Shown one piece after another: positions 3,001 to 64,000 of a stretch of DNA of 64,000 nt; within the stretch, counting starts at the first letter, position 1, and each line of letters begins with the position of its first letter. The notes below the pieces were generated by a model that worked only from the letters and a program-made list of their open reading frames with translations, was not told the origin of the DNA and searched no databases. Source of the DNA: Deuterostichococcus epilithicus (lineage: Eukaryota; Chlorophyta; Trebouxiophyceae; Prasiolales; Stichococcaceae); assembly GCA_033439295.1 (NCBI GenBank), contig JAVTLE010000001.1, forward strand, positions 620,001 to 684,000, read 5' to 3'. Both the position numbers and the translations under genes were made by a program.

Positions 3001-4591
3001 CCGGCGGCCCCGGCGGCGACATGAGGCCGCCGCCGCCCCGCGGGGCCGCGGCGGTCACGTCCCACCCGCCGCCGCTGCAGGGCGTGCCGATTGGGCAGCC
3101 CATCGGCGGTGGCGGCTTCGGCGGCGACGGCAGGGTCGGCTTCGGCGGCGGCGGCGTTGGCGGGCCCGAGTTTGGGCTGGCCCCTCGAGAGCCGGGCCAG
3201 CAGCCGCGACAGCCGCCGCAGCAGCAAACGGCCGATGGCGGCAGCCGGTCGCCGACGCAGTCTCCCATGGGGCAGGAGTCTCCCACGCTGCAGCAGCCCA
3301 TGCCTGAGGCACGCCACTGCCTGCCACAGAAGCCTCCCCCCCACGACTGCCGCTGCCGTTGCCATCTGGCACTGGCACGCATATTGGAGGGCCGCTGTCA
3401 CTGCTGGGACACACCTGTGCATAGGCACACAGTGGGCACCCTGCACTGATCAGCACCAGTCGCCGCATTCCGTTGGGCCGTACTTGCGACATCACCAGAC
3501 GGACGCATGTTGCCACCCTTGCGCCGCCCACCTCCGTTCTTCCTCAGCAGGCATGCGTGTCGTCAGGCACTTAGTCTTCCCCTCGCGGCACCGCTCACGG
3601 CGACCGGCTCGTGCCTGCAGATCCCGGGCCTTGGGTCGGCGGCCGGCGCCCCCAAGCCGCCAGCGCCCAGCGCCGCAGCGACGGCCGCGGCGCGGGCGGC
3701 GCGGGTGCGCAAGCGCAAAGAGGCGCCCTCTGGCGCTCCGGAGGAGACGACCAGGGCCGAACTGCGCATGGTGCTCCACCGTCGACTCCTGCAATGTCCT
3801 CAAGAACCTCCTCAGGGACTAGTGCATACCTCGCGATGTGCGAATTGCCTGCCGACTGAACTGCAGACGCTGACGCAGCGTGGGCGCCCCTGCCGCCCAG
3901 AGGCGGGGGGCAGCTGTCGTCGGCGACGGCAGCTTTGGCTTGCCCCATGTTCAGCACACGAGAGCTCATCTGCTGCGCAGACAGACTTCGCGCTCTGGCT
4001 TGCAAACCGACGATTGCGGGCCGTGCGCGCCTTTGCTGTGGCCTGTTACAACCCTGTGCACGCGCTGCACTCCCCACAAGCCAAACATATACTCTGTGTT
4101 GCGCAGGTGAAGAACCGGGAGAGTGCGGCGCGCTCGCGGATGCGCAAGCAGGCCTACACCGAGGAGCTCGAGACCAAGGTGCGGTGGTTTTCCACGGTCC
4201 TTTGAAAGTCAGCTGCGGTGGTTTCCGAGTGACCTCGCTGTGTGAGGTTTTCCAGCTTGAGTGACCAGTAGCACCGTGCCACGGAAACTGCGCCTGGGCC
4301 GCCGTTGCATCCCTCGATCCATGCAAAGGCTGCAAGAACGGAAACCTGCAATGCGTCTGCATCCGGCCTCATCCTCCACCGTCCTGCCCGCGTGGGAGCT
4401 GCGACATCGATCCACCCTGGAATTGACTCCAGAGTTTCTTCTGGTGGAAGCAGGTGGAGCAGCTGCGGAAGCAGAACGCGGAGCTGCGGGAGCGCGTCAT
4501 CCGGGCCTGCCCCGCGCTGGACCCTGCGGCGCTACGGCGCCTGCCCGCGAGCGACAAGCCGCTGCGCCGCACGCGCACCGACCCGACCTGA
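22..4591 (+). CDS. ABI5/ABF-like (group A) bZIP transcription factor, multi-exon
   Basis: Nuclear DNA-binding regulator. The basic region VKNRESAARSRMRKQAYTEE is in the exon at about 4108-4179. A short leucine zipper (VEQLRKQNAELRERV) follows in the last exon, about 4456-4591, which ends in LRRTRTDPT and a stop. That tail matches the C-terminal LRRT-x-T-x-P motif of plant ABF/ABI5 factors. An upstream exon (about 1223-1488) has TVDDVWAQI, matching the conserved TVDEVW motif of the same group. Other likely exons: up to 255 (LNSQEAFLQDV), 410-571, 650-790 (polyQ), 977-1092, 1949-2110, 2442-2558 (Gln-rich), about 2690-3309 (Gly/Pro-rich) and 3621-3768. Known of the family: group A factors act in ABA and osmotic-stress signalling and are phosphorylated by SnRK2 at RxxS/T sites; that role here is inference. 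The start is uncertain, and an exon before the window is possible. Family call sure, exon edges approximate. Confidence 0.8.
736..792 (+). repeat. CAG/CAA run encoding polyglutamine in the bZIP gene
   Basis: A nearly pure CAG/CAA run in the bZIP reading frame encodes about 17 glutamines broken by one arginine. CAA interruptions are frequent, which usually stabilises such tracts. A second, shorter Gln run lies at about 2535-2558. Confidence 0.85.
4181..4246 (+). repeat. Decayed duplicate after the bZIP basic-region exon
   Basis: The donor-side sequence GCGGTGGTTT at 4181 recurs at 4214, 33 bp downstream, and a looser third version (gaggttttcc) follows near 4242. All lie inside the intron that separates the basic region from the zipper. 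Confidence 0.55.
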
Positions 4592-4690
4592 ATCCGACCC
4601 GAATCGTGGAGGAGGTGGTGCGGGCCGCCAACCGGGGAGGCGAGGCGACACGTTGCTGCGTCGCACGCGCGTCATCAGCCCGACCGTGGG
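4562..4690 (+). repeat. Tandem copy of the bZIP C-terminal exon end
   Basis: CTGCGCCGCACGCGC at 4562, which encodes the LRRTR motif, recurs at 4656 as CTGCGTCGCACGCGC, 94 bp downstream and past the stop codon. The second copy would read LLRRTRVISPT. It lies in the presumed 3' UTR and looks like a decayed duplicate of the exon end. Confidence 0.6.
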
Positions 4691-9100: not shown

Positions 9101-12100
9101 GCGGGATTTCAGAGGACACCCAGCGTCAGCACTTAAAGAACGAAAACGCACTGCACACGCTCGCCACACATGGAAATTGCAGCTGAGCAGGCTCCGGGGC
9201 ACGGGTGCAGCTGCTGGAAGCGTGCGCTGCACACCGCAAGCGAGCTCAGCCTTTCGACGACAACCGCCGCCGGGACCCGGCTGCATGCCCGCACTTTGAG
9301 GCTGGCAGGCTGCAGCAGCCACAGCGCTTTGGACTGAACCCAGGGTCACAAAAGAGCGACCTGTCCTCGAGACGTTTTCGTTCCCATTCCTCAAAGGTGC
9401 AGGGAAGAACGCAGGGAGGAACGCGGCACACTGCAGTTGAGCATAGCCTGGGCGACCTGTCCTCAAGACGCTGTCAGTTCCTGTTCCTCAGGGGTGCTTC
9501 AAAACGGGCAAAACGGCGCACTGTAGGTGAGCTTGGCCTGGGCGAGCGGCATGCCGCACTCAACCAGCAGACCCTGCAGCAGCTCCTTGCCCCGGTCCAG
9601 CCACGTCAGCAGCCGCACCGCGACATAGGGGCTGTGCAGCAGCGCCTCGTGCAGCGTCCAGTGCCGCAGCAGCCCCAGCCGCAGGTCCTCGATCGCCCTT
9701 TGAAATCAGAAAGACATAGTTCACAAAGGAGAATAGGTGCCCTGCATCGCCGGCGCGGTGGCGGGGCCAGCCGAGGAACTGCTGAAATGGGCCGCCTGGC
9801 TTGGAGGTTGACGTGGAAAGCGCCAAGCGCCCTTGGGCCGCGAGTCTGACGTGCCTGGGAGGAGGCTGGAGGTCAAGTGGCTTCTGCATGGCGCAGCACC
9901 CTCAGGCAGGCGGTCCTGAAGGCATGCTCTGCTGACAGGCCAAGCAACCCTGCAGATGCTCCACCCGGCCTCTGCAGCCCTGCTCAGACCCTGCACGGCA
10001 GGTCCCCGTCCTGCCGACAATGGGCTGCCGCGCATGATGACAAGCGTGCGCACTTGATCTGGAGGTGCGTGGGGATGCAGATAGTGGTGCGTGGTAACAG
10101 GTGTGCGCACTTGATCTGGAAGTGCTTGGGGATGCGGATGGTGGTGGAAGCGCCGCTGACGGGGTCTGTCACCGAAGCCTCCTCCTCACCGTCCACGTCC
10201 GCATGGTTGGCGACCTATAGGAGAAAGTAACCAAACTCACGTTTGGAACAAGCATGCGATGGTGCACAGATCTTTGACGACAGATACGCTGAGCAGGGGC
10301 CTGGCAAAGGGAAGGCCGGGGAAGTCAGGGGCGCTTCCCGAAGCGGCTGCAACCGGCTGGCCCCGACTCGTGCCTGGCCGGCGCCTCCCACAGCTGCTGC
10401 TCGGCATGCTAGATACCCCAGGGCTTGCGCACGCGCTGTCGGGCGCAACAACAGCAGCACATTACCGCAAGAGCTACTACGCCAAGATGTGAACTCCCGT
10501 GGAGCCATCTCCTCTTGCCGTGCAAAGAGTCCTCACCTCTGTCTCCAGCTGCATGATGGCCTGTAGGTAGCGTTCTTTGGCCACGTGCTGGTGCACCAGC
10601 TGGTCGGTCACGCCCACTATGTGCAGCCTGCGGTGCGACATCATATTTGGCGTTAGTTCGCAAACACCACACCTGCACTCCCATTGCGTTGCTCCTGGCA
10701 TCTGGGCCACGTGCTGATGCACCAGCTGGTCCGTTGTGACGCCCAATATGTGCAACCTGCAGGTCTGGACAGCGAACGCTCAGTATCGCATGCATCAGCC
10801 GGCACATGGAGTATGCCTTCTCCATGCTTCTTCTTCTGACTTCGATTTTTACAATTGCGATGACGCTTGGGCATTAACTTGTGTGTCACGCCCCAATCTG
10901 TGTAGCCTGCAGAGTTCAAAGGCATTTGCATCAGCAAAGGTGCCATTCTTTTCAGCTGTGCTCCACACTGAAGTGTGCCAGCATTGCGAGTTGCAAGCCT
11001 GCATGTTGAGCGCAGCCATGACGGCATGGCTCTACACATGCAGCATGCCGGAGGCAGCGCCGCGCCCTGCACACTGCGCTGCCAGCAGCGGACACTTCCA
11101 AAGCGCAAGGACTCGGCCATGCAGCCAGCCAGAGGGCAGACCCTGCGCCGTCTTGCCACGGAGCCGGCCATAAGACTCAGGGATGAGGGTGAAGGACAAG
11201 GGGTCTGCAGTTGGTCTAGCTGGAGAGGGCTAGCTGGAGAGGGCTGCCTGCTAACCACAGGAGCCGGTTGTCGTCCAGGTGCACTGCGTGAGCGAGGCTG
11301 AACACGAGCATAGCTCTTCAAGAGGAATCTAGGGTTTAGGCGACTCGCCACAGGAGCCGGTTGTCGTCCAGGTGCACTGCGTGCGCGAGGCTGTAAAGGA
11401 TGCCAGAAGCAGGACGGCCCCAGTAGGTGCCGCGCTCGTAGTAGTCCACGCGCGCCTGCTGCCGCGCCGCCCGCGCCGCTTGCCGCGCTGCCCGCGCCGC
11501 CTGCCGCTGCGCATGCCGTGACGCCGGCGGCGGCGCCGCTGACCCGTCCGCCGCCCTCATCCTGCGCGCGATTGGGGTCGCGTTTGCAGCCGATTGGAGC
11601 CGCTTTCGCAACTGCTTTGCACTTGGGATTGGCAGGCTGGGACTGGGCTCTGGGCGCGGTGCGCAGGGCTGCGGAGCTTTGCAACGAGCACACGGCTGGA
11701 TGGCACGCAGGGCAGGGCAGGGCGAGTGCCTGCTGAGCCCGCAGTTGAGGACGGCCCAAAAGGATTTGAAATCAAACACGACCCAACCAGCGAGAACGGA
11801 CATCTGCTGCGGTGCCTCGCACCAGATCCGCACCTCTGCGCTGGCGGCTCATTCTCAACCTCGCTGTCGTCATCGCTGTCTGCAAGGGCAACACGGCAAG
11901 TTTCAGCACACAGGACCAGCAGGACAGGTGGCGCAGAAACATCTCTTCGCAGCAGTCGCAAAAATCAGTAATACAGGAAGGGGAGATCAGGACACATCGT
12001 CCCAAGCACTGAACAGACCGGCGGCCGGCACTTCTGCCATCAAATGCGCAATCTATATTCTTCCTCTGAAACGCGGGATCTACTTTGCAACCCGACAGTT

Positions 12101-13667
12101 CCACAAACCTAAACAATCCAATCGCCATGCCGCTCCATCATTCTCAACAGAACGAATGTCTCCGAGAGCTGTGGTGGACTTCGCAGCAGCTGAATCTATT
12201 TTATTTAGTATTTTAAAATAGATTATCTGTCGCACCCGATTCGGAGCCGTCCTCCGTGTCCGAGGCCTGCGGGATGTCCTGCGCCGCGGTTCCGTCGGCG
12301 CCATCGTGCAGGAACAGCGTGTCCAGGTCGCGCGGGTCATTGTAGGAGTGGTGGATGGGGCGGTGTGCGTCGATGACGACGGCCCGCACCGCGTCGGGCA
12401 GCTCCAGCAGCGCCCGCAGGTCCTCGCCCGCGCCGCAGTTGATCAGCATCACCGTGCGCGCCATCTGCAGCCAAGTTGAATCCATTGTTCAGTTATAAAC
12501 GGGGTGTAGCGAACCGAAACGGACGAAGTAGTTCCCAGCAGCGCCCGCAGGTCGCCGCCCAAGCCGCAGCTAACGAGCGTCACCATGCGCGCTATCTGCA
12601 GATAAGGATAGACGAAAGTTCCTTGATACATTCATATGTGCACCCTGCGCAGTTGGCAGCTCCCGCAGCGCCCGCAGGTCCTTTCGCCCGCGCCGCAGTT
12701 GATCAGCATCACTGTGCGTGCCATCTGCAGCCTGGTCAGATCCATGTGTTTACCAGCTGCAGCGAATTGAGACGAGCTGAAGTGTTTCCAGCAGCGTTTG
12801 CGGGTCCCTGCCCGCGCCGCAGTGACTAACGTCACCGTGTGCGCCGTCTGCGTGGCTCGAACATGAGTAGACTTGAAATCGGGGAAACACACGCTAGTGA
12901 CTTCAATCCCTGCAGCAGCGCCTAAAGGGCCTCGCCCGCGCATCGGTCAATGAGCGTCATCTTACACGTCATCTGCTAGTTTGAGGGGACCGTGACGCAA
13001 AGTGCGCAGACATGCGCTGGTGCGTGAGGGACCTCTGCAGGAATGGCGCCCCTCCCGCGTCCGCGCCCAGTCAATGATATCACCTATTTCCATGCGGAAT
13101 GTGTCCTGGGACGTGCGCTCAGCGTTGCGCTGCACTGCTGGCGAAGGCCTGCCTCGTGTGTGTCCATGGCATGCCATGACGCTGGCGCGCATTTGAACAT
13201 GACGTGGGAGACTCTCTGAAAAATTTCACCTCGGGGTCTGTGAACTCTTGACGGCAGATGTCCTGCATCTCGGTGTAATTGGACACCGGGTAGATGGTGA
13301 AGTACACGCTGTGCGCCCGGCATATCGTCTGCGGCGGCAGGCACGCCCACCAGCATGAAGGTGTGCAGCAAGATTGACGGTGACATGCTCACACGAGCAG
13401 CACGGTGCTGTCATGATGAACACGAGTTCTGTTTCACAGCGACATGCATGCACCAGTTGCTGCATGCACCTGCCGGTGCCCACTGCCCTTGCAAGCACAC
13501 TGCCTGCGCAAGCACTTCGGCGTCACCTGCAGGATGCGTGTCGCGCAGACCGAGTCAGCTTCGCCGGTGGAGACGAAGACAAGCAGCTTTTTGTCCTCGC
13601 TGGAGGCCAGATCTTCGCGCAGCGCGCCGTTGTACAGCTCCTCGAACTGGCTCGGCGCCACGAGCAT
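6110..13667 (-). CDS. CDC45: CDC45, DNA replication initiation / CMG helicase subunit
   Basis: CDC45 joins MCM2-7 and GINS in the replicative CMG helicase in the nucleus. About 14 exons follow the family in order. Exon 1 (13527-13667) has FEELYNGAL and LVFVSTGEADSVCATRILQ. Exon 2 (13233-13329) has VYFTIYPVSNYTEMQ. Exon 3 (about 12240-12463) has VMLINCGAGEDLRALLELP and DAHRPIHHSYND, then an acidic stretch. Exon 4 (11349-11561) has DYYERGTYWGRPASGILYSL, exon 5 (10537-10627) VGVTDQLVHQHV, exon 6 is 10111-10214, exon 7 (9522-9697) DLRLGLLRHWTLHEALLHSP, exon 8 (8963-9098) SKHAPMFGLSEIAFPSF, and exon 9 (about 8411-8541) SASDVVASLTALLEL. Exons near 8058-8142, 7653-7764, 7019-7200 and 6521-6612 (GSKFGTLFERAARAT, FDTSIIEV) and the last exon at 6110-6183 complete it. 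The junction of exons 4 and 5 needs a GC donor to keep LLW-LHIVGVTDQ in frame. Several introns carry decayed exon copies, listed separately. Confidence 0.93.
7253..7276. repeat. Short telomere-like repeat in a CDC45 intron
   Basis: Three degenerate units of the plant/green-algal telomere heptamer lie side by side (taaaccctaaaacctaaatcc). Similar single or double motifs occur near 8036, 11331, 19428, 21866, 48796 and 62164. Confidence 0.6.
9357..9550 (-). repeat. Tandem copy of CDC45 exon 7 3' end in its intron
   Basis: The last bases of exon 7 plus its donor (plus-strand gcgcactgtaggtgagcttg at 9517) recur at 9426 as gcacactgcagttgagcata, about 91 bp away. The adjoining intron motif cgacctgtcctc recurs at 9357 and 9453. 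The unit is therefore about 91-96 bp, with one functional and one decayed copy. Confidence 0.75.
10046..10150 (-). repeat. Tandem copy of CDC45 exon 6 3' end
   Basis: The exon end encoding IPKHFQIK plus donor (plus-strand gtgcgcacttgatctgga at 10103) recurs at 10046 with the same 18 bases, 57 bp further into the intron. The copy still reads IPTHLQIK and keeps a GT donor, so it could act as an alternative 5' splice site. Confidence 0.85.
10585..10915 (-). repeat. Three tandem copies of CDC45 exon 5 5' end
   Basis: The acceptor and first codons of exon 5 (LHIVGVTDQLVHQHV) occur at about 10585-10630. A second copy ends at about 10760 (LHILGVTTDQLVHQHV, 130 bp upstream in the gene) and a third, more decayed, ends near 10910 (150 bp further). 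Each keeps a CAG acceptor. Only the first continues into the rest of the exon. Confidence 0.85.
11256..11400 (-). repeat. Tandem copy of CDC45 exon 4 3' end
   Basis: cacaggagccggttgtcg at 11349, the exon 4 end encoding DDNRLLW, recurs at 11256. The match continues through the HAVHL codons over about 45 bases with few differences. Spacing is 93 bp and the copy lies in the intron after exon 4. Confidence 0.85.
12403..13196 (-). repeat. Seven-unit tandem array of CDC45 exon 3 5' end plus acceptor
   Basis: Aligning the acceptor-proximal motif catctg, the units fall at 12462 (the real exon), 12593, 12722, 12845, 12970, 13085 and 13190, with spacings of 131, 129, 123, 125, 115 and 105 bp. Units 2-4 still resemble ARTVMLINCGAGEDLRALL on the minus strand (for example IARMVTLVSCGLGGDLRALL). 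Units 5-7 are progressively harder to recognise. Unit 3 is the closest match to the real exon. The array fills nearly all of intron 2. Confidence 0.88.
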
Positions 13668-17800: not shown

Positions 17801-20800
17801 CCGCGTGGGCTCTCATCTTCAGGATGTTCTGGGACCTGAGTCGCATCTCGGATCGCAATCGTTGTCCTGCAGCCTTTGGTGCGCCTCATAGACCGTGCCT
17901 GCCATAGGTGCGCAGAGCAACACCGGTTGTGCAGAGTCGTGACAGAAGGTCGCGGCGCGCTCCTTCTGAGACATTGATGGCATGCAAGCCAGCGAGCACG
18001 CCACGAGCGCCGGCAGTGCGGGCCCTGAACACAACAACGGCCTACCAGGCGCCCGGGGTTCAACCTCGCCAACCGAGCCGCAGGCTCTTTGCAGACATGC
18101 CGCCGACTGCCGGCCCCAGGGGCTGCGGCTGCAACTCAGGATCAAAACGTGCTGCAGGCAGCCCCGAGTTTGCGAGGGCTCCGAAGTAATGTGCCGCCAA
18201 TATGAAGTAATGTGCCGCTGGTATGAAGTAATGCGCCGCCGCAGGTGATGGAGTCCACAGCGGCGGCCGGGTGGCCGGGCGTGCGGCTGAGCGCGCTGGG
18301 GGAGGCCGACGCGGGCGGCGCGGGTCCAGCGTCCCGCTCCGCGCCCGCGGCCCTGGGCGCCGCCGCGGCCGACGAGGAGATGCTGGTGGGCTCCTTTGCC
18401 CGGTTTCCAGAGCCGTAGAGCCACGTGATGTGACGCTAAGTGTGATGCAGAGCTGGACTCGGTAACTCGTTTTGGCCGGGATTGGTCCTCCAGATCCTGA
18501 TCATCCTGATCATGCCCGGCCCCTCCATTCCGTCTTCAGGCGCCTGGGCGAGAAGCCTCACGCGCATGGGCTTGGGGTCATGCCATCGACGTGGGCAAGC
18601 ATGCATCATGCCTGCTGGTGCTTGGCGGCCATGTGCAGGGCGCATTACTGCTGCGGGCGCAGGTGCGACAGCTGAGGGAAGCGCCGCGGGCACGCTGGTC
18701 GCGGGTCGGTCGACATGCAACCATGCTCCATGCCTGCCGGCACTTCCTGCATGCTGTGCAAGGCACGCGCTGACGGAGTCCAACCCACCTGGCGCAGGTG
18801 CGGCAGCTGCGGGAGGCGCTGCGGGCGCGCGCCACGATGCCGCCCGCCAGCACCGAGGTCAACGCCGCGCTGCAGGTGCTTGCATCTCAGCCTCCTGGCT
18901 GACTGCAAACATCCCACATGCCAAACTTCCCTTGCAGACGATGAGGTAGGACGTCGTTCGTCGAAGTCACAACCAGGTGCATGGTGCAGGGAGCGCCCTT
19001 TAGCATGCGAGCTTGTGGACGCTGTAACAAAGCTCCCGCGAAACTCCCGCTCTGACTGACAGTTTGAGGGTATGGATGCAAATTCGGCATTGCAGCCAGA
19101 TGTTGGGGGCTCGTGAAGCTGCAAGGCAAGAGACAACCTCCTTGCCTGCAGTTTGCCGGCAGTTCGCTGTCGGGCTCTCTTCGGCTTTCCCTGGAGGAAT
19201 CCCAGCGGCTGAAGGCGCTGGGGTCGGATTCACTCATCACTCAGCACTGGAGGGAAAGGGAGCACCAAGCGTAACAACGACAGCTCCTCCCTGCATCCGG
19301 CAGGCGGTGGAGGGGTATCAGCGGCTGGCGGCGCTGCTGGCGGGCGAGGCGCCACGGGGCCTGCTGCCGCCCGCGCCGCGCGGCTACCTGCCCCTCCGCA
19401 TCCGCCAGCTCGCGGGTGGGCTCATCCTAAACCCTAGAGTAGCGCCCCGCTCACGCCCGCCTCCTCTACTTCGGATGCGCTGACGCACACTGTACTACAC
19501 TGCGCTTCACTTACTGCACTGCACGATCCAGACTGTGTCGCCTGGCGACAGGACTGGTTCGGCGCAACCGCCGTCGGTGCCACGCGGGCACATGACCCGA
19601 TGTCTGATCTGTGCTCCTCACTGCCTTCGTGGCACGACAGCTGAGCAGACAGCGCCCCTGTGTGCCACGCAGAGGGCACCTGCCTGACGGCGTTCACGTG
19701 GAACTCGGGCGGCGTCTGGCAGGGCGCAGCCTGGACAGCGGACCTGCCGACCGACGCGGCGCTGCTGTTCTACCTGTTTGCCGCCTTCCTGGAGGCCCCC
19801 AGGTCAGCTGGCCACCGACGTGTCCTCTTGATCAGAACATGGGCAGCGTTAGAGGTATTCAAGGCATCTATTCAATGCCTTGAATACCCCTAGCATGCCA
19901 GTTCTTGCTGCCCCTCCACCAGCAGATGCGCGGGATGTCGCAACATGCAAGCCCATGGTAGTACGCCAGAAGCATTGTGAATTTCAATCGATTCGCTCGC
20001 TCGCCCTGGCGTCACCCAAGCTCCATGCGGGCGCGTGAATTTCATGCCCTTCTTGTGCATGCGGCCGTGCAATTCCAACGCCCCTCTTGACACCACGCGC
20101 CGCATCCCATTCGGGCTCCGCTGAGGCAGCCAGCACTGAAACATGTGCCCCCGCATTTTCACCTGGGCCTGCAGGTGGCGCTTCGGCGGGGAGGAGGCTG
20201 CGGCGGTGGTCGCCGGGCCGCCGCTGTTTCTTGGCAGCCTGCCGGCTCGCCAGCCAGAGCATTACTTTGCGCTGCTGCCCTTCCGCCCCGCCTCCTTGTC
20301 CAAGGTGCCTGTGCAATTCTTTTCAAGTGACCATCCAGAAGTGATCTGAACATGAATGAATTGTTGGGAATTGCAATCTGTTGCCGGGTGACCGTCGCAC
20401 TCTGGGTGTGCCTCCCTCAGCTTTTGCTGGCTGGGACATCTAACTCAGAGGCGGCAGCAGCAGCCATGTGTGGACGCTCCCGAGACCATGCATGCAATGT
20501 GCAAGCGTCTACAGCCATAGTAACGCAGAGTAAGCCACAGGCAGTGGACCTAGAACTTCACACCCTCTTGAGTTCTTGAGCGAAGACATTCTCGAATCAG
20601 GCCGCAGCGGTGGCACTGGCGCCAATGCGCGGCTTCTGTCATGCTTCGGACCAGCATGCCCTCTCTCTGCTGCAGTGCGCTGGTGCTGTTGCACGCTTCA
20701 GATGGCGCCACAGATGTGATGCATGTCCATTTCAATGCAGGGTGCCACGGCGGTGCTGGCGCTGGAGCTGGGCTCCCGTGAGCCGCACTTCACGCTGGTG

Positions 20801-44604: not shown

Positions 44605-45263
44605 GGCAAGCCGATGAACGGAAAACCTCAGCGAGTATCTGCGCGGCACGGTCAGGATGAGTGCCGCCACGCACGGGCTGCAGTGGACCAGGTCGTCAAA
44701 CAATCCGCTTGGAACAATTCACATTGTTTTGGGCGTATGAAAGACCAAAAACAACCCAGTTGGAGGAGCACGTGTAGGGGATCGATACAACAGTGCTACT
44801 CAGTCACGGGTGCAGAAGGCAGCAACCTTGCAGCACTCCGAGCCAAGCGGTCGAACCCAAGATCAATGTCGCAAATCCAATGAGTACTGCCTGCAAAGAT
44901 CACAGCCAAGCCACAGCCAGACACAGCTCTGATGCCCACTCGACTTCCAAGAAAAAGTTGCCTCGTCAGCTTGAGTCACCCGCTGGCGTCTGCAGAACGT
45001 GTCTCCCGTCCTTGAGCCGCTCACAGTTCAGGCGCAGTCCAAACTGTCGAGGCACAAATGTGCTGCACTTGCCACGAACTGCGCGCGCATCGTGGCGTTG
45101 TCCTGGCAGAGTTCAGTGACGTTTCACAGAAGATAAGGAAACGGACAGGTTTGCGATATTGCTGATGATCAGTTCCAAAAGCTACGTCTACGCTATCCAA
45201 AGAGTACAGAGACATTGAGACGGGCCTGGCCAGCCTGAAGAACTCCCTGTCAGCAGCTGTAGT
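44605..45263. promoter_or_regulatory. Divergent promoter region, thioesterase B / HMG-CoA synthase
   Basis: About 660 bp separate the start codons of two divergent genes. GC is lower than in the exons. A minus-strand open frame at 45021-45326 overlaps the HMG-CoA synthase start and is judged a shadow. No specific element was recognised. Confidence 0.45.
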
Positions 45264-50390: not shown

Positions 50391-53300
50391 TCAGCCGTCT
50401 GGCGCCATCTGCCGCACGCACCAGGCAGGGTATTCGGGCCATGCGGCGACAAAGCGCGCATCTGGCACGTCAAGCACCGCGAGTGCCGCCTTGGCTAGCG
50501 CCTCTGGCCGACCGGCCGCCGCCTGCTCCGCCAGAAAGCGCAGCCGCAGGTACTTCAGCCGAGCCTGCGGCATCAAGCACCAAATCTTCGATGTTACGTG
50601 TGCGTCACGGTTGCTGATGTATGAAGCGTCAGCTTCGAGTGACCCAAAGCTGCCTTGATGCGTTCGCAACCACGACCGCGACGGCCGGTACATGCGTGAA
50701 GCACGCTGGCGGTGCAAACGCGTCTGTCGCACATCAGGGACGCGCGTCCTCGGATCAGAGCCTCTTCGCCTGTAGGCCGGGGGTGGCACTGCCGCACTGG
50801 CAGCGGCGAACGGCTGGTCCCTGCCAATGGGTACTTGCCTAAAAATAAAACTAAACTCAGACAGAGTTCAGACCCTTGCACATAGAGAAAGGTTGGGACG
50901 CGCCTTTGCCATCGCATTACTCAGCCAGCTGGGGAACTTGCGTGGGCGCTGCGGCGGCTGCCCAGAAGATGCCCGCAGAGCCTCAAACTTGGCCACCTCC
51001 CCTAGTCGGAACGCCACCGTCTCTACGCAGAGTGCAGCTTGCTGGAGTCAGCGCCAGTTTTACAGCGTGTCAGGCGCGGTGCAGGCACCCCTTGAGCGCG
51101 ATGCAAGCAAGGACGAGGGCCTGCGGGCGGCGCTGCGGCAGGGGGAGCAATGGGGCATGTCCTGGCGTGCAACGCGACTTCCTGTCCCCAAGCTTCCTGT
51201 CTCCAAGCTGTAATGGCACAGCTCGTGCTGAGCGCCCAGCGCCGCTGTATGCTCCCTGGATCCCCCACCTGCTCAACCATCATCAAGCACTCGAGGCAAG
51301 CGCACCTGGCGTGCGCTTGAGGATGCCCCCATCATACTCGACCAGCTCCCTCATCTGTTCGGCGTCCAGCCTTGCCGCCGCGCGCAGCCGCTGCCACTGC
51401 AGTCGCAGAGACTCCGACCGCAGCTGCGGGACGGAGCGCGATGCGCCGCATTAGCTCGTCAGGCTATCATTTTATTCTGGTTGACTGTCCCGCTTGAACT
51501 GATATGGGGTTTATCAATAAGCATTCTCCGTTTGGGGCAGGGCACAATGCCATCGGCGTGGGACAGCTGTGAGGCCTGATGTGTGTCGCTGAGCCAGCCT
51601 GCCACTGCCAGAAACGGAGCTACTCACAGCAGCTCTGCTTCGATCAGGGTGCAGCCCCGCTGTCGCCTGCCGCTGCTGCGGCAGCTTTGGTGTGTGCAAG
51701 ACATGCGTTGCGCGTACACAGCAGCAGCAGGTACGCTTGCAGATGTGCATGCTGCAGGCAGCTGCCGCAGCGCGCAAGGGAGTTCACAACCCACATGCAA
51801 GTGCAGGAAGCAGGAAGCACACTTTCAGGACGCCAGGCTGGCGCCACAGGATGCGCGCGACGTCCAATCCCGGGTGCAGCTGCTGCAGGGTGGCCACCCG
51901 CTCCGTGTACGTCGCAAAGTCCCCAGCCTGCATGAAGCAGTGTGACGGGTGTAACAAGGTTTCAACGTTTTATGCGGGATGCAGCAAGGTGCCAGACTCG
52001 GCACCCGCCAGTGACAGCCGCCTCGACCGCTTTAGCTGCGATTAGCATTGGGAACCTAGGGAACATTCATGGGAACTGCATTGAACTAGGCATGCCAGCA
52101 TCAGCCGAGAGGCGCAGAGACCGACTGTGGCGTCAAGCATGCTCCAGCTCTGTTTCATCGAGTCCAGCAGACCGCCAGGGTTGGCCCTGGGTGCACGGGC
52201 ACACCTGCAGCAGCTCTGGCGCCCGCCACAGCATGTGCAGCGCGTCGCACTGGACAGGCCACGACGCCACGGTCGCCAGGAAGCGGGGGAGCTGCGCCTC
52301 TAGGGTCTCTGGCTTGAAGGTCAGCAGTGGCATGATGGCCGACGGCGGCGGCTGCGGCGAGGGACGCGTGAAACATGAGAAAGAACACTCTCGCAACATT
52401 ATGATGATGAAATTCTTGCGGCAGCGCCGCCTCCAGGCGTGCGGCTCGAAGGACATCAGCTGCATGATGGCCACCGCCGGCGGCTGCTGTGGGGGATGTG
52501 AGCGCAGTAAAAGAATCTCAGAGAATCTCTCTCAGGCCTGTGCGGAATTGGAAGACGGCTGCTCTCGCGTCTGCGCCGTGCGCAGCTCGACCAAGACATG
52601 CGGCTTTGCCGTACACGAATATCGGCTGGCCTCGCCAAAGCCTACCGCCAAAACACCAATGCCATTCCCTCAGAACTCTGAAACTCATTCGGATGCTGTG
52701 ACGGGCACACAGCGCCAGCAGCAGCGCCAGCAGCNGNTTGGGTCCCCCCCCCACCCACCCACCACCACCACCACCACCCTCCCCCATGGAACCTTTCAAA
52801 TCCGAAGACCAAACCCACCTTGATGCCGTGGTGGGCGAAAAGCTCCAGCAGCAGCCGCAGCTTGGACAGCAGCAGGTAGGGGTCCCGCTTCAGGGCGTCA
52901 ACGTCCATCAGCGCCGCACGGTTGACGTCGCCGTCCCACCTGGGGCCGCAAAAGTGACAAGAACATGAAGAATATGACGCCTGTCTCGGGGTCAGAGCGC
53001 CTGCATCCGCGCCGCGCGGTTGACACCGTCGTCACACCTGTGTGGAGAACAGCGTGAGATCTTAATCAAGATTGAGCAGGACCGCGCATTCGAATTGACC
53101 TCGCCAATCCAGCCTGCACAAATGGCAGAACTTCATGCAATCGCTGTTGAGCTGAAACAGCTGCTGGCAGCCGCAGCAGCTGCGATATAGGTCGGTGCAA
53201 CGGCCAGCGGCCCTGATTGCCTGCTGTGCTGCGAGTCGGGCACGCTGTCGCCGTATGGTTCGTATGGCATGCCAGAGGCTGCGCCGAATGAGCCACCGAG

Positions 53301-54607
53301 GTGGCTGCACGTGTCCGCGAATCCCGGGGTTCAGGCAAAATTACGCAGGCCAGTTCGGTGGCGGCGCCTCGCCGCCTCGCGCGCTGCGCCAGCCCCGCGT
53401 TCTTGTCGGCAGCGCTTTCGTGGCGACCCAGTGTCCCATGTGCGGCGCCAGCTGTCGAGCGCATCCATTGCGGGCAACACGGGCCTTGAGAAGGTGGGGT
53501 TCAGGGTTCAGGGGACATACCCGCACGCAATACGGGCACTGAAAAGGTAGGTTTTATAAGCCATACCCGCAGGCAATCTTGGCGGCGTCCCAGCGCTCCA
53601 TGCGCTGCGCCAGCTGCGCCACGTTGCGGTGCATGGCCTTGGCAGCAATAAAGCGCAGCACCTTGCGCCGCTGCCGCCGCTGGTCCACGGCCACCTGGCA
53701 GCGGGGAGCAGCGGGTTCCGTATTGTAAATTCTAGTGGGGACGCGGAATCGGCTGCGGAATCAGCTGCGGAATCGCGAGTTCCTATGAGAAGCGGAGCCG
53801 GCAGGGATGGTTTGGCAGCTGGGTGGGGCAGCCTGCGGAGCGGGTGTGTGTGGACCCAGCGACAGGCTGCAAGCCACCGGGCGGCAGACATGGCCCCCAC
53901 CCAGCTGACCCCTCTCTCGCTGTAGACTGCAGAGTTGACAGTGAACTTCGGTACCAATGTGAGTCGCGCCGATGCACACCTTCAGAACAACTTGGGCGCC
54001 ACTCGGCAAGCAATGCTGTTCCCGGTAGGGCACCGAGGCATCGATGCTGCAGCAGCCAACCGGCTGCAGCGGCCCTGGCTGGGAGCTGGCGGCCATTCTG
54101 AGTCCAAACAGCACGTCTTCTGTGAGTATCGTTCCAGTGGCAGAAACTGCAACGCACCAATGCGCTGTCGATCTGCGCTTCGTCCAGCAGCAGCCCGCGC
54201 TCCGTCCAGAACTGCAGCACCGCTGCCTCCACCTCCGGCGAGTACGGCACATGCGGCGAGCGCTTCACTGCCAGCCGCATCGGCAGCACCTCTGCTGGCT
54301 GGCCACCCTCTGTTGTCGGCTCTGCTGCCGCTGCCGCTGCTCCTGCGGCGCCGCCTTGCGAGGCGGCATCATCCGTGGCGGCGCCGGCTGTTGCGGCATG
54401 CTCGGCGGCGGCCGCCTGTGGCGCTGCCTGCGCGGCAGCCGTGGCTGCGGCGGTCGATGTGAATGCCGCACGACTGGCGAGGGCTGCTGTCCACACCGCG
54501 GCTGCTGATGATGATGACTCAACCGCGCGGGCCGCGCAGCTGCCGGATGCTGGCGCTGCTGCAGCCCAACCAGCAGCAGCAGGCGCCAGTGCCGCCAGGC
54601 TGTGCAT
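50391..54607 (-). CDS. mTERF-like organelle-targeted protein
   Basis: mTERF proteins bind organellar DNA or RNA in transcription termination, splicing or translation. The first exon (54607 down to about 54130) starts MHSLAALAPAAAGWAAAAPA and is rich in Ala/Ser with few acidic residues, as in chloroplast/mitochondrial presequences. Then AVLQFWTERGLLLDEAQIDS, KVLRFIAAKAMHRNVAQLAQ (53570-53690), ALKRDPYLLLSKLRLLLELF (about 52820-52940), LLTFKPETLEAQLPRFLATV with ALHMLWRAPELLQ (about 52190-52345), LHPGLDVARILWRQPGVLKV (about 51830-51910), LQWQRLRAAARLDAEQMREL (about 51315-51435), an exon near 50930-51000, and ARLKYLRLRFLAEQAAAGRP to the stop at 50391-50393. Repeated helical units of about 30 residues with a Pro before Leu fit mTERF, but no unit is textbook; another helical-repeat organellar protein is possible. 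Confidence 0.55.
52331..52510 (-). repeat. Tandem copy of an mTERF-like exon start
   Basis: The exon start AIMPLLTFKPETLEAQLPRF (plus-strand catgatggcc at 52331) is preceded in the gene by a second copy (catgatggcc at 52463, 132 bp away) reading AIMQLMSFEPHAWRRRCRK. The similarity spans about 75 bases and includes the CAG acceptor. Confidence 0.85.
52735..52737. other. Ambiguous bases (N) next to a C-rich run
   Basis: Two N calls at 52735 and 52737 lie between a CAG-rich run and a poly-C/ACC run (52743-52790). The local sequence is uncertain and probably reflects a difficult homopolymer region. Confidence 0.95.
52912..53042 (-). repeat. Tandem copy of an mTERF-like exon start
   Basis: gccgcacggttgacgtcgcc at about 52914 and gccgcgcggttgacaccgtc at about 53012 are copies 98 bp apart. 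The first is the start of the exon containing RWDGDVNRAALMD. The second lies upstream in the intron and also ends in a cacctg acceptor. Confidence 0.8.
53474..53590 (-). repeat. Three short tandem copies of an mTERF-like exon end
   Basis: gcaatcttggcgg at 53573 (exon end AAKIACGYG) is followed into the intron by gcaatacgggcactgaaaag at 53527 and gcaacacgggccttgagaag at 53474. Spacings are 46 and 53 bp. catacccgcaggcaatc (53562) and catacccgcacgcaata (53516) show the same register. Confidence 0.75.
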
Positions 54608-56277: not shown

Positions 56278-59200
56278 TCAGTTGCGCAGCAGCAGCCGCG
56301 ACAGCACGTAGTGCCGTAGTTCGTCCTTCACCTGTTTTGGCAGGTGACAATAATGGGATGTTGTAGAAAGGAGCTTTCACAAGAGAAACCGTGACACCAA
56401 AAGTGAACCGTGAACGCGGCTGCCTACCCGGATGCATGTTGTTGCAAAACAGAGGGTACCAGCCGCATGCACGGCAGCCGAGGCAGGCAGTCGCTGTTGG
56501 TGCCCGCCCCCGGGGAGCCGCCCAGCAAGGCAGAAGGCACGGCCCAATGGAAACAATTGCACCGCGACATGACAAAACCCACGCCGTAAATGTGAGCTTC
56601 GGCACTGGCGAGGCCGAGCCTGCACGCACCGCAAAGGTGAAGTCCAGGTGGCCAAAGTCGAACTCCTTGTAGGTGACGCGGGCGCCTTCCTGCCGGAATG
56701 CCTCATAGTGTAGCAGCACCTATGAACAAATGTGAAATGATTCAAATTATGTTATTTTCAGGGGACCTGCGCCGCGGGCCGTGTGATGTGTTGTGTTGCG
56801 TGCCAAGACCAGTCGAAAGCAGCGGTGTTGCATGCTTGCCAGTGAGGAGAGATAGGTAAAGCGCTCTGCACATCCTCAACCGCCCTGGCCGCAGCTGCGC
56901 CACCTGTCAGGTTGGTGCTGCCTGTGCAGTGGTCTCTGCCGACCGCGCGGCGACGCTGCCTCATCGAGCCACGGCTGGGTGCGGCCGTTGCAGCCCCTTC
57001 GGTTGGCGTGTTGTGTGCTGCAGGGGCAGCATGCATGCTCGGCGCGGACGCACATTCTCCTTGGCGATGACGCCGTCAGCGCGGCCGGCGCAGATGTCGA
57101 CGGGGCAGTCCAGCAGGCCATAGAACCCCGCAACGTCCGGCGGCTCGCTCTCGCCATAGTGCTCCCTGCGGCAGCGATGTCACAGACCCCTCGAATTGCG
57201 TCACCCATCGTCCTTCAAACGCCCTTGCAGCCTGGCAGCTTGACGGCCAGATGCCCTGTCAGTGGCGCAGCAGGCACCACACTCGGGCATGGCGCTCAGG
57301 CTCGACCGCCGCCTCTCACGGCATGAGGTCCGAGCCCGTGCGGCCGTCGTCGTAAGCTTGCATAGCGCCGGGCATAAGGGGCAGGGTGCGGCGCCCGGAA
57401 ATGTTGAAAGGAGAATGCGAGGGCCCTGCACAGGGCCCTGGAGCGCGCCTGTTGGCGCCGGGCGAGCCGTAGTCGAAGAGCGTGAACCGGCCGGAACGCG
57501 CCCACTGGATGAGGTGCACGCCCGTGTGGAAGCTGATGGCAGGCATCGCGCGCGCATTGTAGTGCGGCATCTGCAGAGCGCGGTCCCACTGGCTGGCATC
57601 CCCGTTCAGCAGCATCCTGCGGTGCAGGAACCGCGTCAGCATCAGCCAAGTCTCGGAGGATCTGGGAGGCCCTTGCAGTGCGGCATCTGCAGGGCGCGGC
57701 CCCGCTGGCTGGCGTCCCCGTTCAGCAGCATTCTGCAGTGCTGGGCCCAGCGCCATTCAGCGCCTCGTCAGCACGGCAATGGGTCTGTAGCTGCTCGCGC
57801 AGTCAGACTCCAAGTCGACTGCGCCCAGCTTTGTGGGCTTATAAATGGCAGACGTACGAATGGCAGACTTAATCCGAAGGCTCCCGCGCCAGGGCACGAC
57901 GAGTCCGATGCTGAACGATCTTCGAGCCACAGTATCGAGCTGGCAGAGCGTTTCCGCACGAATGTGCCTGCCACGTGTCGAGCACCGCCCGACATCTGCA
58001 GTACCTTCGCGCATCACTTACAGAGACACGACGATGTGCCAGCAACAGCACGTTGCCTGCATTCGTTGGATCCCGCCACTCTGTGGCCTTGAAGTCCGGC
58101 TCTTGCGCCCACACAGGGAGGGTGGAGAAACCGGGAGTGTCGTGGAGAGCGCACCGCATGCCGGCAAGCGTCAGCTCGTTCAGCGCGGGAATCTGCTGCA
58201 GGTCCACAAACACCTTGAAGGTGAGGTATCGCAGCAGGGAGGACGGCACATATGCGGCGGCGCCGGCGCCCGGCCACTTCCAGTCCACCAGCCGTGCGAG
58301 GGGCGGGATGACCTTGGTGAATGGCCACAGCGCCTGTGTGGTACACCGCGATCTTTTTGATGATGATTATTTTGAGTTTTTTCTCCTTTAAGGTGAAGAA
58401 TGACGCGCTGCCGGCACCCTCGCGGTGCCTTGCCGACGAGGCCTTGGGCGGCGTGGCAGTTCTCGCGACAGGCCCGGAGTCATCTGCGCCAGCTCCGCCG
58501 CCCCGGCTGCAAAACACACCTTTCCTGCTGGGACGGCTGCTGGTCCGGCAGCGAAACAAGATTTTTTTGTCAGGTGTTGTCGCACCATGGGCGTCTTCTT
58601 GAGGAAGCCGGCGGGCGTGAGCAGGATGAGGCGGTATAGGTGGTGGGGGCGGCCAGTCTTGCCGCACATCGCCGCATAGACCTGCGGCGCAGCATGGAAC
58701 CAGCATGTCGCCTCTGCGGTCGAGGGGCGGGCTTGAGGCAGCACAGTGGTGGGGTCGCCCTGGCTTGCGGCAGTGCACCACATGGACTGCAGCCGGCACT
58801 CTGCCCGCCACCAAGTGCACGTGAAAGGAGTGGCACTGTGCAGCTGCGGCTTGAAGCCAGTTGCCAGTTTCCAGCGAGACGCACTGTCGGCCAGGACCAA
58901 GCCGCAGCCTCCCACTGCCTCCTCCTGGACGCACGCAGCGCCTGGCAGGAGGGCATCTTCCGGCAGGGGGACATGCTCATGCACCAGAGCAGGGGGCCCC
59001 ACCAGCAGGGAGGCGCCGCCGAGGCTGTGGCCCACCGCCCGCAGGCGGTAGGGCAGCCGCTCGGGGCCCAGGCCGCTGCCGGGCGCGGAGGGGCGCGCCG
59101 CCGAGGCGCTGCGGGCGCCGCCGCGCGACTCCCGCTCCCACGCCGCCCGCCGCTGGTCGCGCTGGTGCCCTGCGAATGTCCCAAACCCCAGATGTGAAGC

Positions 59201-62200: not shown

Positions 62201-64000
62201 AGGCGAGGCGGGTTGGCGCGCGAGTTGCCGAGCCACACGTCAAAGCCGGCGTCATAGGCGGCAAATGCATTGCTCCCTGTGACGCCGTTGCACACCCAGC
62301 CCATGGATGTGTCCAGGATGCCGTGCATGAAAAACACGACATCGCGCGCGCCTGCGGAAAAGGTGAGAACACTGGTCACTAGGATTGCTCCTTTTGTGTT
62401 TGTTTCGGCAGATGGCATGCCGCCCTGCAGCCCGCGGAGGTGTCCAGGATACCAGATGCATGAATGACACCATGTCACGAGCGCCTGCAAGAAAGGTGCA
62501 GGGGTGTTCCTGGATCGTGATCAGAAGGCGACCCTTCCTGCGGCTCATGCATGTGTGATGCTTCCAGGATGCTGGCTGCGTCTTCAAATCCTGTTCATAG
62601 CAGATGGTTGTGCGGATTCCTGTGCTGTGAGTGTGCAGCTGGAGCAGGTCCTCGATCAAAAAGAGGTTGCAACCGCCTGTGCATCCAGATTATTCATCTG
62701 CCAATGCCAGTGGTAGTGACTCGAGCCACTTTGGAGCAGGTTCCCCTCACCGCGGCGGGGGATGCGCTCCATGTGCATGATGTCGCCGTCGCAGGTGGTC
62801 ACATGTGGGGCGCCTTTTGAACCTCCTGCAAAGCCTTTCGGAGGACACTCGTGGGCTGCTGCTTGCTCACCGCGGCGGGGGATGCGCTCCATCTGCATGA
62901 TGTAGCCATCGCTGGTGGTCACGATGTGCGGCTCCATGGGGTACCCTGCGGACTGGATGACGTCCTTCGCCGTCCACACGCCGTGCAGCGTCTCGTACGC
63001 GGAGAAGCTGGCCGACCGCCGCAGCCGCTGCGAGCGGTATGTGCGGCTTGCCCCTTCCTCCGGCTCGGCTGTGGGTGCAGAGTTTGTGAAGGAATGTGTG
63101 ACCAAAGTGTTACGATATGCTGCGTATTGGGAGCTTGACATATGGAGCAATGTCAAGGGCCGCAGCTACTGCGAGGGACAGCTCTGGCTGGCGCCCGCCT
63201 CTGGCGCGGCAGCAGCCAAATGATGCAATGTGCAATCACAGCCTGATGACCGCAAAGCGCAAGGCCATCTTGCAAGGCCAGGGCGCCAGCAGCGTGCAGC
63301 AGTCGCTGCTGCGGCGTGAGCAGTGCCTGCAGGCCAGAACCTGCCCCCAGCTCGATGCACGGAGGAGTGACGGAGCCCAGCAGGAGCAGCAGAACATGCA
63401 GGGCATGCTACATCTAGATTTGACTGCGTACCCCCTGGAGCGTGTAAACCCTGCTAGACCCCATCTCCTGCTCGGCTGTTCTGGACGAGGAACAGCACAG
63501 CCTGGTACCAACGACACCTTGGCTCCAGGAGCCAGCAGCGGAGGGCTGGCTGCTCATGGTGGCAAAGGCTGTCGCGCTGCTTTCTGCATGTGGGCTTGCA
63601 GATGTAGTGTGCTGGGAAGTCACCATGCTTCTCGGGACAGAGTACAAGCAGGCCCGGCCGGCACATCGAAGCAAGCAGGCCCCACCTTCTGCGGCACAGC
63701 CAGCCGCGCCGAGGCCGAGCCCGCGCAGCGCCGGCGACTCCCGCGGCGGCGGCACCCGCAGCGTGCGGCGCACCAGCCAGCGCACCGTGTCGAAAGCCGC
63801 CGTGACCGCCAGCTCGCAGCTCAGGCGGAACTCCTCCACGAAGCCGCGCCGGTGGCCGCCCTCCGACACCGCCCAGCCTGCTGGGTGCCATGGATGTCAG
63901 TGCGCGCTCCAGGGAGTCGGGTGGCGGTGCGGGTATGCTGACAAGATGCCAGCCTGCGCAGTGCCGCAGAGTTGCTGAACCAGCGACGGTGCCCAGAATG
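56278..64000 (-). CDS. Triacylglycerol-lipase-like alpha/beta hydrolase (At1g73920/At1g18460 type), N-terminus outside the window
   Basis: Exons in coding order: about 63690-63890 (FVEEFRLSCELAVTAAFDTV); about 62866-63070 (DVIQSAGYPMEPHIVTTSDG, the lipase N-terminal domain); about 62195-62350 (HGILDTSMGWVCNGVTGSNA, YDAGFDVWLGNSRANPP); about 61790-61860 (RYWHYSVNELGMEDIAAQ); about 61390-61550 (IDHIHIIKTTEL); low-complexity exons 60795-61190, about 60175-60337 and 59450-59955; about 58985-59170 with the nucleophile motif GHSLGGASLLV; about 58570-58680 (HLYRLILLTPAGF); about 58200-58320; about 57454-57648 (MPHYNARAMPAISFHTGVHL, FTLFDYGS); about 57054-57171 (CPVDICAGRADGV, probable catalytic Asp); 56632-56720 (FGHLDFTFA, catalytic His); and 56278-56331 (KDELRHYVLSRLLLRN, stop). 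The Ser-Asp-His triad is complete. The insert before GHSLGG is about 300-400 residues, much longer than in plant homologues. In vivo substrate unproven. Confidence 0.9.
57563..57770 (-). repeat. Tandem copy of a lipase exon segment
   Basis: tgcggcatctgcagagcgcg at 57563 and tgcggcatctgcagggcgcg at 57679 start two copies 116 bp apart, similar over at least 70 bases. The first belongs to the functional exon (MLLNGDASQWDRALQMPHYN). The second lies upstream of it in the gene and reads only in a shifted frame. Confidence 0.85.
60945..60985 (-). repeat. CTG run encoding polyGln in the lipase insert
   Basis: A run of CTG on the plus strand encodes about seven Gln within a longer Gln/Gly/Asn-rich linker (QQQRRQNGRQQAGQQQQQQQ) on the minus strand. 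Confidence 0.8.
62341..62492 (-). repeat. Tandem copy of a lipase exon start and acceptor
   Basis: The exon start GARDVVFFMHGILDTSMGW has its acceptor at about 62350. A copy reading GARDMVSFMHLVSWTPP has its own pyrimidine tract and CAG near 62483, 133 bp upstream in the gene. An indel breaks the copy's frame after the His codon. Confidence 0.88.
62746..62940 (-). repeat. Exact-register 120-bp tandem copy of a lipase exon end
   Basis: ctcaccgcggcgggggatgc occurs at 62866 (end of the exon with SDGYIMQMERIPRRGE plus donor) and at 62746. The copies are exactly 120 bp apart and similar over about 65 bases. The downstream copy still reads CDGDIMHMERIPRRGE and keeps the GT donor. Confidence 0.92.

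What the first reader, a model, noticed from the sequence alone, without database searches (positions are those of the whole stretch)
4140..63000. Genome-wide pattern: exon edges duplicated in tandem into neighbouring introns
Nearly every gene here carries one or more decayed same-strand copies of the first or last 30-75 bases of an exon together with its splice site, placed in the adjacent intron or UTR. Spacings cluster at about 30-70 bp and 90-136 bp. Both acceptor-side and donor-side edges are affected, and unrelated genes share the pattern. Random tandem duplication should not centre on splice junctions this often. Possible causes: repair of breaks with template slippage at exon-intron borders, an RNA/cDNA-templated repair process, or selection that keeps only duplications whose duplicated splice sites let the extra segment be spliced out (duplication-driven intron growth).
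Basis: partly seen in the sequence, partly recalled or inferred. Interest (0 to 1): 0.9.

Follow-up and report, generated by a model that had tools for sequence, protein, structure and literature searches.

The report
Exon edges copied into neighbouring introns
In this green-alga-like genome about one intron in ten, and about a third of the long ones, holds a worn copy of the edge of the exon beside it, splice site included, which suggests that introns here often grow by local copying at exon borders that splicing then hides.

Summary
The pattern is real but overstated. In 314 kb (window, next 200 kb, 50 kb of three other contigs), with self-trained gene models partly confirmed by Pfam, 56 exon-edge copies lie in 50 of 501 introns and 31 of 57 genes, not nearly every gene. 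Controls are clear: 33 direct versus 1 inverted repeat at lags 100-200; own adjacent intron versus the intron across the exon 44 to 3, unrelated introns 12 of 4146. Copies begin at the splice site, carry a decaying AG or GT, and concentrate in long introns (19 of 53 of 450 nt or more, 4 of 236 below 250). Acceptor-side spacers are never under 34 nt, donor-side ones reach 6, as if splicing still needs a branch point. A spliced-RNA template is not supported. Contiguous tandem duplication fits a minority: the intron side is usually not co-copied (z>2 in 5 of 43, about 60% expected; 4 of 10 ladders do show it). Best reading: break repair duplicates exon edges, splicing tolerates it, introns lengthen. 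Why copying respects exon borders is unexplained.

The parts
10111..10146 (-). donor edge of a CDC45 exon (36 nt)
   Evidence: gene model; CDC45 Pfam; case
10054..10089 (-). its copy in the next intron, lag 57, 89%; a contiguous tandem duplication (58-bp match 10032-10089 / 10089-10146)
12386..12464 (-). acceptor edge of a CDC45 exon, master of a four-step ladder
12535..12595 (-). ladder copy 1, lag 131, 82%, with CTGCAG
12640..12724 (-). ladder copy 2, lag 260, 87%, with CTGCAG; part of a later duplication of about 250 bp
12785..12847 (-). ladder copy 3, lag 383, 80% (ends approximate)
12910..12972 (-). ladder copy 4, lag 508, 73% (ends approximate)
17864..17898 (+). copy of donor edge 17748-17782, lag 116, 77%
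18663..18742 (+). copy of almost the whole 78-nt exon 18798-18875, lag 135, 70%; it starts at the first base of a 135-nt intron (see noticed in passing)
52692..52731 (-). copy of donor edge 52822-52861, lag 130, 78%; same intron as next
52420..52483 (-). copy of acceptor edge 52287-52351, lag 132, 76%
53417..53488 (-). copy of donor edge 53579-53641, lag 162, 71%
52992..53037 (-). copy of acceptor edge 52890-52939, lag 98, 74%
57657..57731 (-). copy of acceptor edge 57541-57615, lag 116, 84%
58716..58787 (-). copy of acceptor edge 58611-58681, lag 106, 70%
62751..62814 (-). copy of donor edge 62871-62935 of a lipase-like gene, followed by GTGAG, lag 120, 89%; intron flank beyond GTGAG not similar
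62428..62484 (-). copy of acceptor edge 62297-62351 in the same intron, lag 133, 77%
63159..63209 (-). copy of acceptor edge 63018-63068, lag 141, 71%; weaker matches at lags 287 and 407

Best explanation
Short local duplications of DNA, most likely from error-prone repair of (staggered) breaks, repeatedly copy an exon edge, mostly about 25-95 nt of it, with its splice site into the intron on the same side of that exon. Where the real splice site keeps what it needs, the extra segment is spliced out, so the event is tolerated, the intron becomes longer and the copy decays as neutral sequence. Repeats make ladders, and many long introns are built this way. Shown: anatomy, orientation, own-side rule, neutral-looking decay, spacer floor, link with intron length. 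Inferred: break repair as the source, and tolerance by splicing. Unexplained: why copying usually stops within about 10 nt of the splice site.
For: Direct, not inverted, and local. Own side 44 versus 3 in 359 internal exons. Pseudo splice sites apparently present at birth and decaying: of copies that begin exactly at the junction, AG kept in 15 of 23 and GT in 6 of 7, near identity squared. Neutral decay: mismatches at all codon positions, mostly 1-nt indels, lags spread over three frames. Splicing filter: spacer under 34 nt in 0 of 32 acceptor and 5 of 16 donor cases, P=0.0026. Long introns enriched. Ladder steps near-equal within introns, P=0.008. Genomic rather than spliced template. About 4 of 19 well-preserved cases extend through most of the spacer, or as far as the 80-nt flank tested. 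Telomere-like 10-mers, known elsewhere as break-repair scars, cluster at intron ends.
Against: In 38 of 43 cases the intron-side flank is not measurably co-copied, though forward simulation of neutral tandem duplication (acceptor side) expects z>2 in 36-93% of cases depending on divergence. Counter-note: 5 of these 43 are later ladder steps, for which the flank was paired with the wrong unit; with ladder spacers paired properly 4 of 10 arrays exceed z=2, which raises the count but leaves it well below expectation. No source for the spacers: 3 tested were unique in the genome; 4 of 33 had a local match, mostly to other edge copies or the exon. Ladder regularity argues for contiguous units while spacer dissimilarity argues against them. 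No RNA data and no sister genome.
Confidence: 0.5

Rival explanations
1. Plain random tandem duplication plus survivorship: duplications fall anywhere, exon-interior ones are purged, and those with one copy in a conserved exon stay recognisable longest.
For: A tandem pair split between exon and intron must span the junction; exon-exon survivors are mostly in frame (8 of 11); a few cases are clean tandem duplications (10032-10146); intron-internal 70-mers also hit the same intron in 73 of 2195 cases, so introns are not free of repeats, mainly of short period.
Against: Intron-intron pairs at lags 80-160 are 4 versus 31 exon-intron pairs, far below the about twofold loss expected from double decay (my estimate); intergenic pairs 6 versus 17.3 expected; intron flanks mostly not co-copied.
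Confidence: 0.2
2. Tandem duplication across the junction followed by repeated overwriting of the nearest copy by the exon (gene conversion), so spacers drift apart while the exon copy stays similar. A version of the best explanation with an added step.
For: Ladders with equal steps but unrelated spacers, e.g. contig position 113602: copies 96% and 83%, spacers of 70 and 72 nt with z 0.6.
Against: No patchy identity in 0 of 35 copies, although whole-copy conversion would leave none; paralogues 5.6 kb apart show no exon-limited conversion, third positions 82.8% versus non-exon 81.2%.
Confidence: 0.15
3. Template-switching insertion (copy and paste) of a junction segment into the existing intron; the spacer is simply the old intron end. 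Also a version of break repair.
For: Spacers mostly unrelated to the flank of the copy, unique in the genome for 3 tested; intron-side extension median 9.5 nt versus 5 in control.
Against: Does not by itself explain why the block so often includes the splice site or why ladder steps are equal; 4 of 10 ladders have similar spacers.
Confidence: 0.25
4. Copies templated by spliced mRNA or cDNA.
For: Sharp stop at the exon border. A first scan found 26 of 501 own-intron matches crossing the spliced junction versus 15 of 501 in a control.
Against: With a matched control, extension into the partner exon is near chance (5 of 48, median p 0.77) while extension into the intron flank is not (12 of 48, median p 0.21); a pseudo splice site borders most copies.
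Confidence: 0.04
5. The copies are functional: decoy splice sites or poison exons kept by selection.
For: Copies diverge less than their spacers; 60% of 30 pseudo-acceptors still score above zero on the acceptor matrix versus 3.8% of random intron sites.
Against: Substitutions at all codon positions, single-base indels, splice dinucleotide loss at about the rate of other sites.
Confidence: 0.05

Closest known systems
Tandem genomic duplication across an intron-exon boundary (potato RdRp, PMC4974935; abstract read)
   Same: The duplicated sequence crosses a 3' intron-exon boundary, and splicing signals are inherited with the duplicate.
   Different: One gene and a new intron there; here many introns, lengthening of existing introns, both edges, ladders, and mostly no co-copied intron flank.
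Staggered double-strand-break repair in Daphnia neointrons (PMC4202315; passages read, including part of the abstract)
   Same: Direct repeats flanking an insert; authors propose that internal staggered breaks increase intron length.
   Different: Exon-shared repeats there are 4-12 bp at opposite ends of a new intron; here 24 nt or more of exon, on one side, with splice site, in established introns.
Direct repeats near splice sites (PMC11782384; abstract and passages read)
   Same: Direct repeats concentrated at intron-exon borders.
   Different: Their repeats of 4-30 bp pair the 5' with the 3' border; here each edge pairs with a copy on its own side.
CST/Pol alpha-primase small tandem duplications (PMC8355091; abstract read)
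   Same: A known route from breaks with 3' overhangs to small tandem duplications.
   Different: Studied at Cas9-induced breaks in cultured cells; the abstract makes no link with splice junctions.
Introners (PMC9860276; search listing and start of abstract only)
   Same: Would also build introns.
   Different: Introners are dispersed similar copies; spacers here share no family and the three tested are unique.

Membership tests
Contiguous tandem genomic duplication across the junction | second copy in direct orientation, next to the first | tested here: met
Contiguous tandem genomic duplication across the junction | whole unit, intron part included, is repeated | tested here: not met
   not met as a rule: 5 of 43 with z>2 versus about 60% expected; about 4 of 19 well-preserved cases and 4 of 10 ladders do fit
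Contiguous tandem genomic duplication across the junction | regular period when iterated | tested here: met
   10 arrays, P=0.008; 3 of the 10 are irregular by 27 nt or more, and weak second steps can be chance (28 of 976 in unrelated long introns)
Daphnia-type staggered break with insertion | direct repeats flanking novel sequence | tested here: inconclusive
   spacers mostly unrelated to flank and unique where tested, but they may be old intron ends
Daphnia-type staggered break with insertion | short repeats (4-12 bp) | tested here: not met
   exon extent 24 nt or more, which is also about the shortest my score threshold can detect
Introner elements | inserted sequences similar to each other across genes | tested here: not met
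   44 spacers, best pair score 77, not above what so many comparisons should give (no formal test); 3 of 3 unique
mRNA/cDNA-templated copy | copy runs on into the spliced partner exon | tested here: not met
Whole-exon tandem duplication / mutually exclusive exons | complete exon with both splice sites duplicated | tested here: not met
   the copies listed cover one edge; one near-complete 78-nt exon copy seen (18663-18742); the listing was cut, extents of all 56 cases are

The most novel reading that the evidence does not exclude
A duplication process directed at splice junctions: copying that starts or stops at the exon border and places the exon edge on its own side, perhaps because breaks or copying are coupled to transcription, splicing or exon chromatin. 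It would be a main source of intron lengthening in this lineage, with splicing acting as the filter.
Probability: 0.25. Interest if true: 0.88.

Novelty: new variant of a known kind. Interest (0 to 1): 0.62.

Why it matters
How introns grow is mostly explained by transposons or unspecified insertions. Here growth leaves a dated record: each event keeps one conserved copy, the exon, beside one freely decaying copy. That makes rate, direction and splicing tolerance of intron growth measurable from one genome, and asks whether exon borders are hot spots of DNA duplication. It also warns that gene annotation in such genomes can mistake edge copies for exons: the laxest of the four gene-finder settings called the lipase donor copy an exon.

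Tried and rejected
A first repeat scoring was too lax and a first gene-finder setting predicted about 2200 tiny exons; both were replaced. Plain survivorship: not enough alone. RNA/cDNA template: a first scan looked positive (26 of 501 versus 15 of 501) but a matched control removed it. Gene conversion with short tracts: no patchiness, 0 of 35. Filler from nearby DNA: 4 of 33 spacers with a direct match at p<0.05, mostly other edge copies or the exon, none inverted. Filler from elsewhere: three spacers unique. Spacer family: none seen. A neighbouring segmental duplication was used as a clock: non-exon sequence and third codon positions both 81-83% identical. A supposed edge copy in its MIP genes proved to be a probable 28-nt microexon. 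Co-occurrence of donor and acceptor copies in the same intron is 6, against 2.99 expected within length classes, so it is weak. Mismatch rate is somewhat higher at third codon positions (0.218 versus 0.161 and 0.186). Second copies of an edge appear in 17 of 48 cases, but unrelated introns of the same length give such a hit in 18.7%, so only the anchored arrays are used. A DNA search with 19 kb of the window found no paralogous introns to compare. Rfam and tRNA scans of the window were empty. Literature: eight paper searches listed no report of this pattern; beyond listings I saw only the abstracts or passages named in Closest known systems and passages of PMC3446292. The library lacks most subscription papers.
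Full report
SOURCE. The window is G000:C1:620001-684000 of an unnamed 46.8-Mb, 21-contig eukaryote. A predicted HMG-CoA synthase has as best named hits two Coccomyxa proteins (47% and 55% identity), with land plants, Myrmecia, Chlorella and Trebouxia among the next, below an unnamed transcriptome protein at 57% (120 of 852 hits listed), so a green alga is likely; the species was not established. I worked on 314 kb: the window, the next 200 kb of C1, and 50 kb from C5, C12 and C18. Searches used the 264-kb C1 stretch only.

GENE MODELS. No annotation was available, so I wrote a splice-aware gene finder and trained it on the sequence itself. The setting used gave 60 genes, 613 exons (mean 131 nt) and introns of median 253 nt. 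Of eight predicted proteins or parts sent to Pfam, five have above-cutoff families (MIP, CDC45 twice, HMG-CoA synthase, lipase region), one a sub-cutoff BAR match and two none. Three other settings gave 49, 58 and 51 cases with similar anchoring (acceptors 79-86%, donors 47-56% within 6 nt). The analysis used 501 introns of 60-2000 nt whose flanking exons both score above 3.

THE PATTERN IS REAL. Direct repeats at lags 15-315 number 94 after low-complexity filtering, against 8 and 4 in bands at 315-615 and 1015-1315 and 1-2 in five equally wide bands beyond 3 kb. With blastn at lags 100-200, 33 are direct and 1 inverted. Against length-matched introns of other genes, 24 donor and 44 acceptor edges of 501 exceed the control 99th percentile, where about 5 each are expected; inverted orientation gives 1.8% and 0.8%. 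At a stricter score, 56 cases lie in 50 introns and 31 of 57 genes; 48 of them (16 donor, 32 acceptor, 42 introns) start within 12 nt of the junction at a lag of 300 or less and form the set used below, so 8 were dropped. Anchored copies were found on C1, C5 (1 of 27 introns) and C12 (3 of 31), none among 2 introns from C18.

ANCHORING. In 31 of 36 acceptor and 11 of 20 donor cases the match begins within 6 nt of the splice junction, against 11-12% for uniform placement in the exon. Much of this is automatic for tandem duplication, so I tested sides in 359 internal exons of at least 60 nt: the acceptor edge is copied into the upstream intron in 29 and the downstream intron in 1; the donor edge into the downstream intron in 15 and the upstream in 2; control 12 of 4146 pairs. 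For 168 exons of 115 nt or less it is 12 versus 0. Of 90 kept repeats (20 of 110 dropped), exon-intron pairs are 45 (random placement 23.2), intron-intron 24 (35.1), exon-exon 11 (11.0), intergenic 6 (17.3), exon-intergenic 4 (2.2), intergenic-intron 0 (1.2). At lags 80-160 there are 31 exon-intron but only 4 intron-intron pairs; intron-intron repeats are mostly of period 50 or less. Sliding 70-mers inside introns do match elsewhere in the same intron in 73 of 2195 cases, so introns are not free of duplication.

ANATOMY. A typical copy covers about 53 nt of exon with a spacer of about 66 nt to the real splice site (medians of 38 cases). Pseudo splice sites seem to start intact: for copies that begin exactly at the junction, AG is kept in 15 of 23 and GT in 6 of 7, close to identity squared. 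Mismatch rates by codon position are 0.161, 0.186 and 0.218, indels are mainly single bases and lags are spread over all three frames, so the copies decay as noncoding sequence. The best ladder, in a CDC45 intron (12465-13229), has four copies at lags of 131, 260, 383 and 508 nt, with weak traces beyond by eye. In 10 arrays the first two steps are more alike than shuffled steps (P=0.008), with three irregular arrays; an unrelated long intron gives an anchored hit at that threshold in 28 of 976 trials.

INTRON GROWTH AND SPLICING FILTER. Anchored copies occur in 3 of 48 introns of 60-150 nt, 1 of 188 of 150-250, 10 of 156 of 250-350, 9 of 56 of 350-450, 11 of 30 of 450-600 and 8 of 23 above 600. 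Acceptor-side spacers are never shorter than 34 nt (0 of 32), whereas 5 of 16 donor-side spacers are (P=0.0026). That fits selection for a branch point and pyrimidine tract downstream of the pseudo-acceptor; the donor side has no such need. Exon-exon repeats have periods divisible by three in 8 of 11 cases (P=0.009).

WHAT IS COPIED. If a contiguous unit were duplicated, the intron stretch between copy and exon should recur beyond the copy. It usually does not. In the best-preserved cases (8 acceptor, 4 donor, exon copy 89-91% identical) binned identity is mostly 0.8-1.0 on the exon side and, from 10 nt into the intron on, 0.35-0.68 per bin against 0.55-0.58 for unrelated intron ends. Spacer similarity exceeds z=2 in 5 of 43 cases. 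Forward simulation on the acceptor side, with indels taken from the local segmental duplication and the same detection step, expects z>2 in 93%, 80%, 53% and 36% of cases in rising divergence bins, about 60% for the observed mix. Five of the 43 are later ladder steps whose flank was paired with the wrong unit; when ladder spacers are paired properly, 4 of 10 arrays exceed z=2 (one at 8.1), which softens but does not remove the deficit. Among 19 well-preserved cases about four extend through most of the spacer, or as far as the 80-nt flank tested, including 10032-10146. So there seem to be two outcomes: contiguous tandem duplication, and edge-limited copying.

MECHANISM. A spliced-RNA template is disfavoured. 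Short-tract gene conversion left no patches (0 of 35). Spacers have no clear source nearby or, for three tested, elsewhere in the genome, and no evident shared family. Break repair remains the most economical source. Telomere-like 10-mers are 17 in introns against 0.2 expected, and 11 of 17 lie within 25 nt of an intron end where 18% is expected. Of 20 circular classes with the same base composition the telomeric one ranks first on exact counts (17, next 10); at one mismatch two other classes are slightly more numerous overall, but it is first by far near intron ends (34 versus at most 16). Elsewhere such stretches were inserted during break repair (PMC2246262 and PMC7215372, search listing with start of abstract), but a C/T-rich motif near an acceptor could also be selected as a splicing signal.

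KNOWN WORK. The nearest precedents are a potato gene with a tandem duplication across an intron-exon boundary (PMC4974935, abstract), Daphnia neointrons with staggered-break repeats and proposed passive lengthening (PMC4202315, passages), short direct repeats near splice sites (PMC11782384, abstract and passages) and CST/Pol alpha small tandem duplications (PMC8355091, abstract). The Coccomyxa genome paper mentions no such pattern in the passages found for intron, exon, repeats, tandem and duplicat (PMC3446292). The eight searches listed no account of own-side exon-edge copies in many introns of one genome; the library is incomplete.

LIMITS. Gene models are ab initio, there is no RNA, no sister species and no second algal genome for comparison, so I cannot say whether the pattern is special to this alga. 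Case numbers are small (48 anchored), and local alignment favours lucky copies, which the simulation was meant to allow for.

Noticed in passing
introns throughout; e.g. the spacer of the intron at contig position 183653: Telomere-like CCCTAAA stretches sit at intron ends: 17 exact 10-mers in 501 introns versus 0.2 expected, 11 of 17 within 25 nt of a junction, 12 of 17 C-rich on the sense strand.
   Followed up: partly
18663-18797: This 135-nt intron is as long as its repeat period (lag 135): the copy of the next exon starts at the intron's own GT, and both exon junctions read GCAG|GTGCG. That fits the classical AGGT tandem-duplication route to a new intron; model recalled and summarised in PMC4974935's abstract.
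   Followed up: no
33564-38712 and 39183-44607: Tandem segmental duplication (lag about 5.6 kb, matched blocks 73-78% identical) carrying an aquaporin-type MIP gene and a second gene in each copy; non-exon sequence and third codon positions are about equally diverged.
   Followed up: partly
41614-41641 (minus strand) and the matching stretch near 36020-36047: Probable 28-nt microexon of the MIP genes, in frame with the MIP family and present in both duplicates.
   Followed up: partly
60926-61040: Glutamine/CAG-rich stretch with dozens of partial matches across the genome, apparently low-complexity coding repeats.
   Followed up: no
33006-33558: Local tandem and inverted repeats with a spacing of about 150 bp next to the segmental duplication.
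   Followed up: no
contig position 161235 (L002-L021 joined to the window): A 41-bp direct repeat, 97% over 29 nt, whose second copy reads (by eye) to a stop codon; possibly an alternative protein end rather than an edge copy. It is counted among the 48 anchored cases.
   Followed up: no
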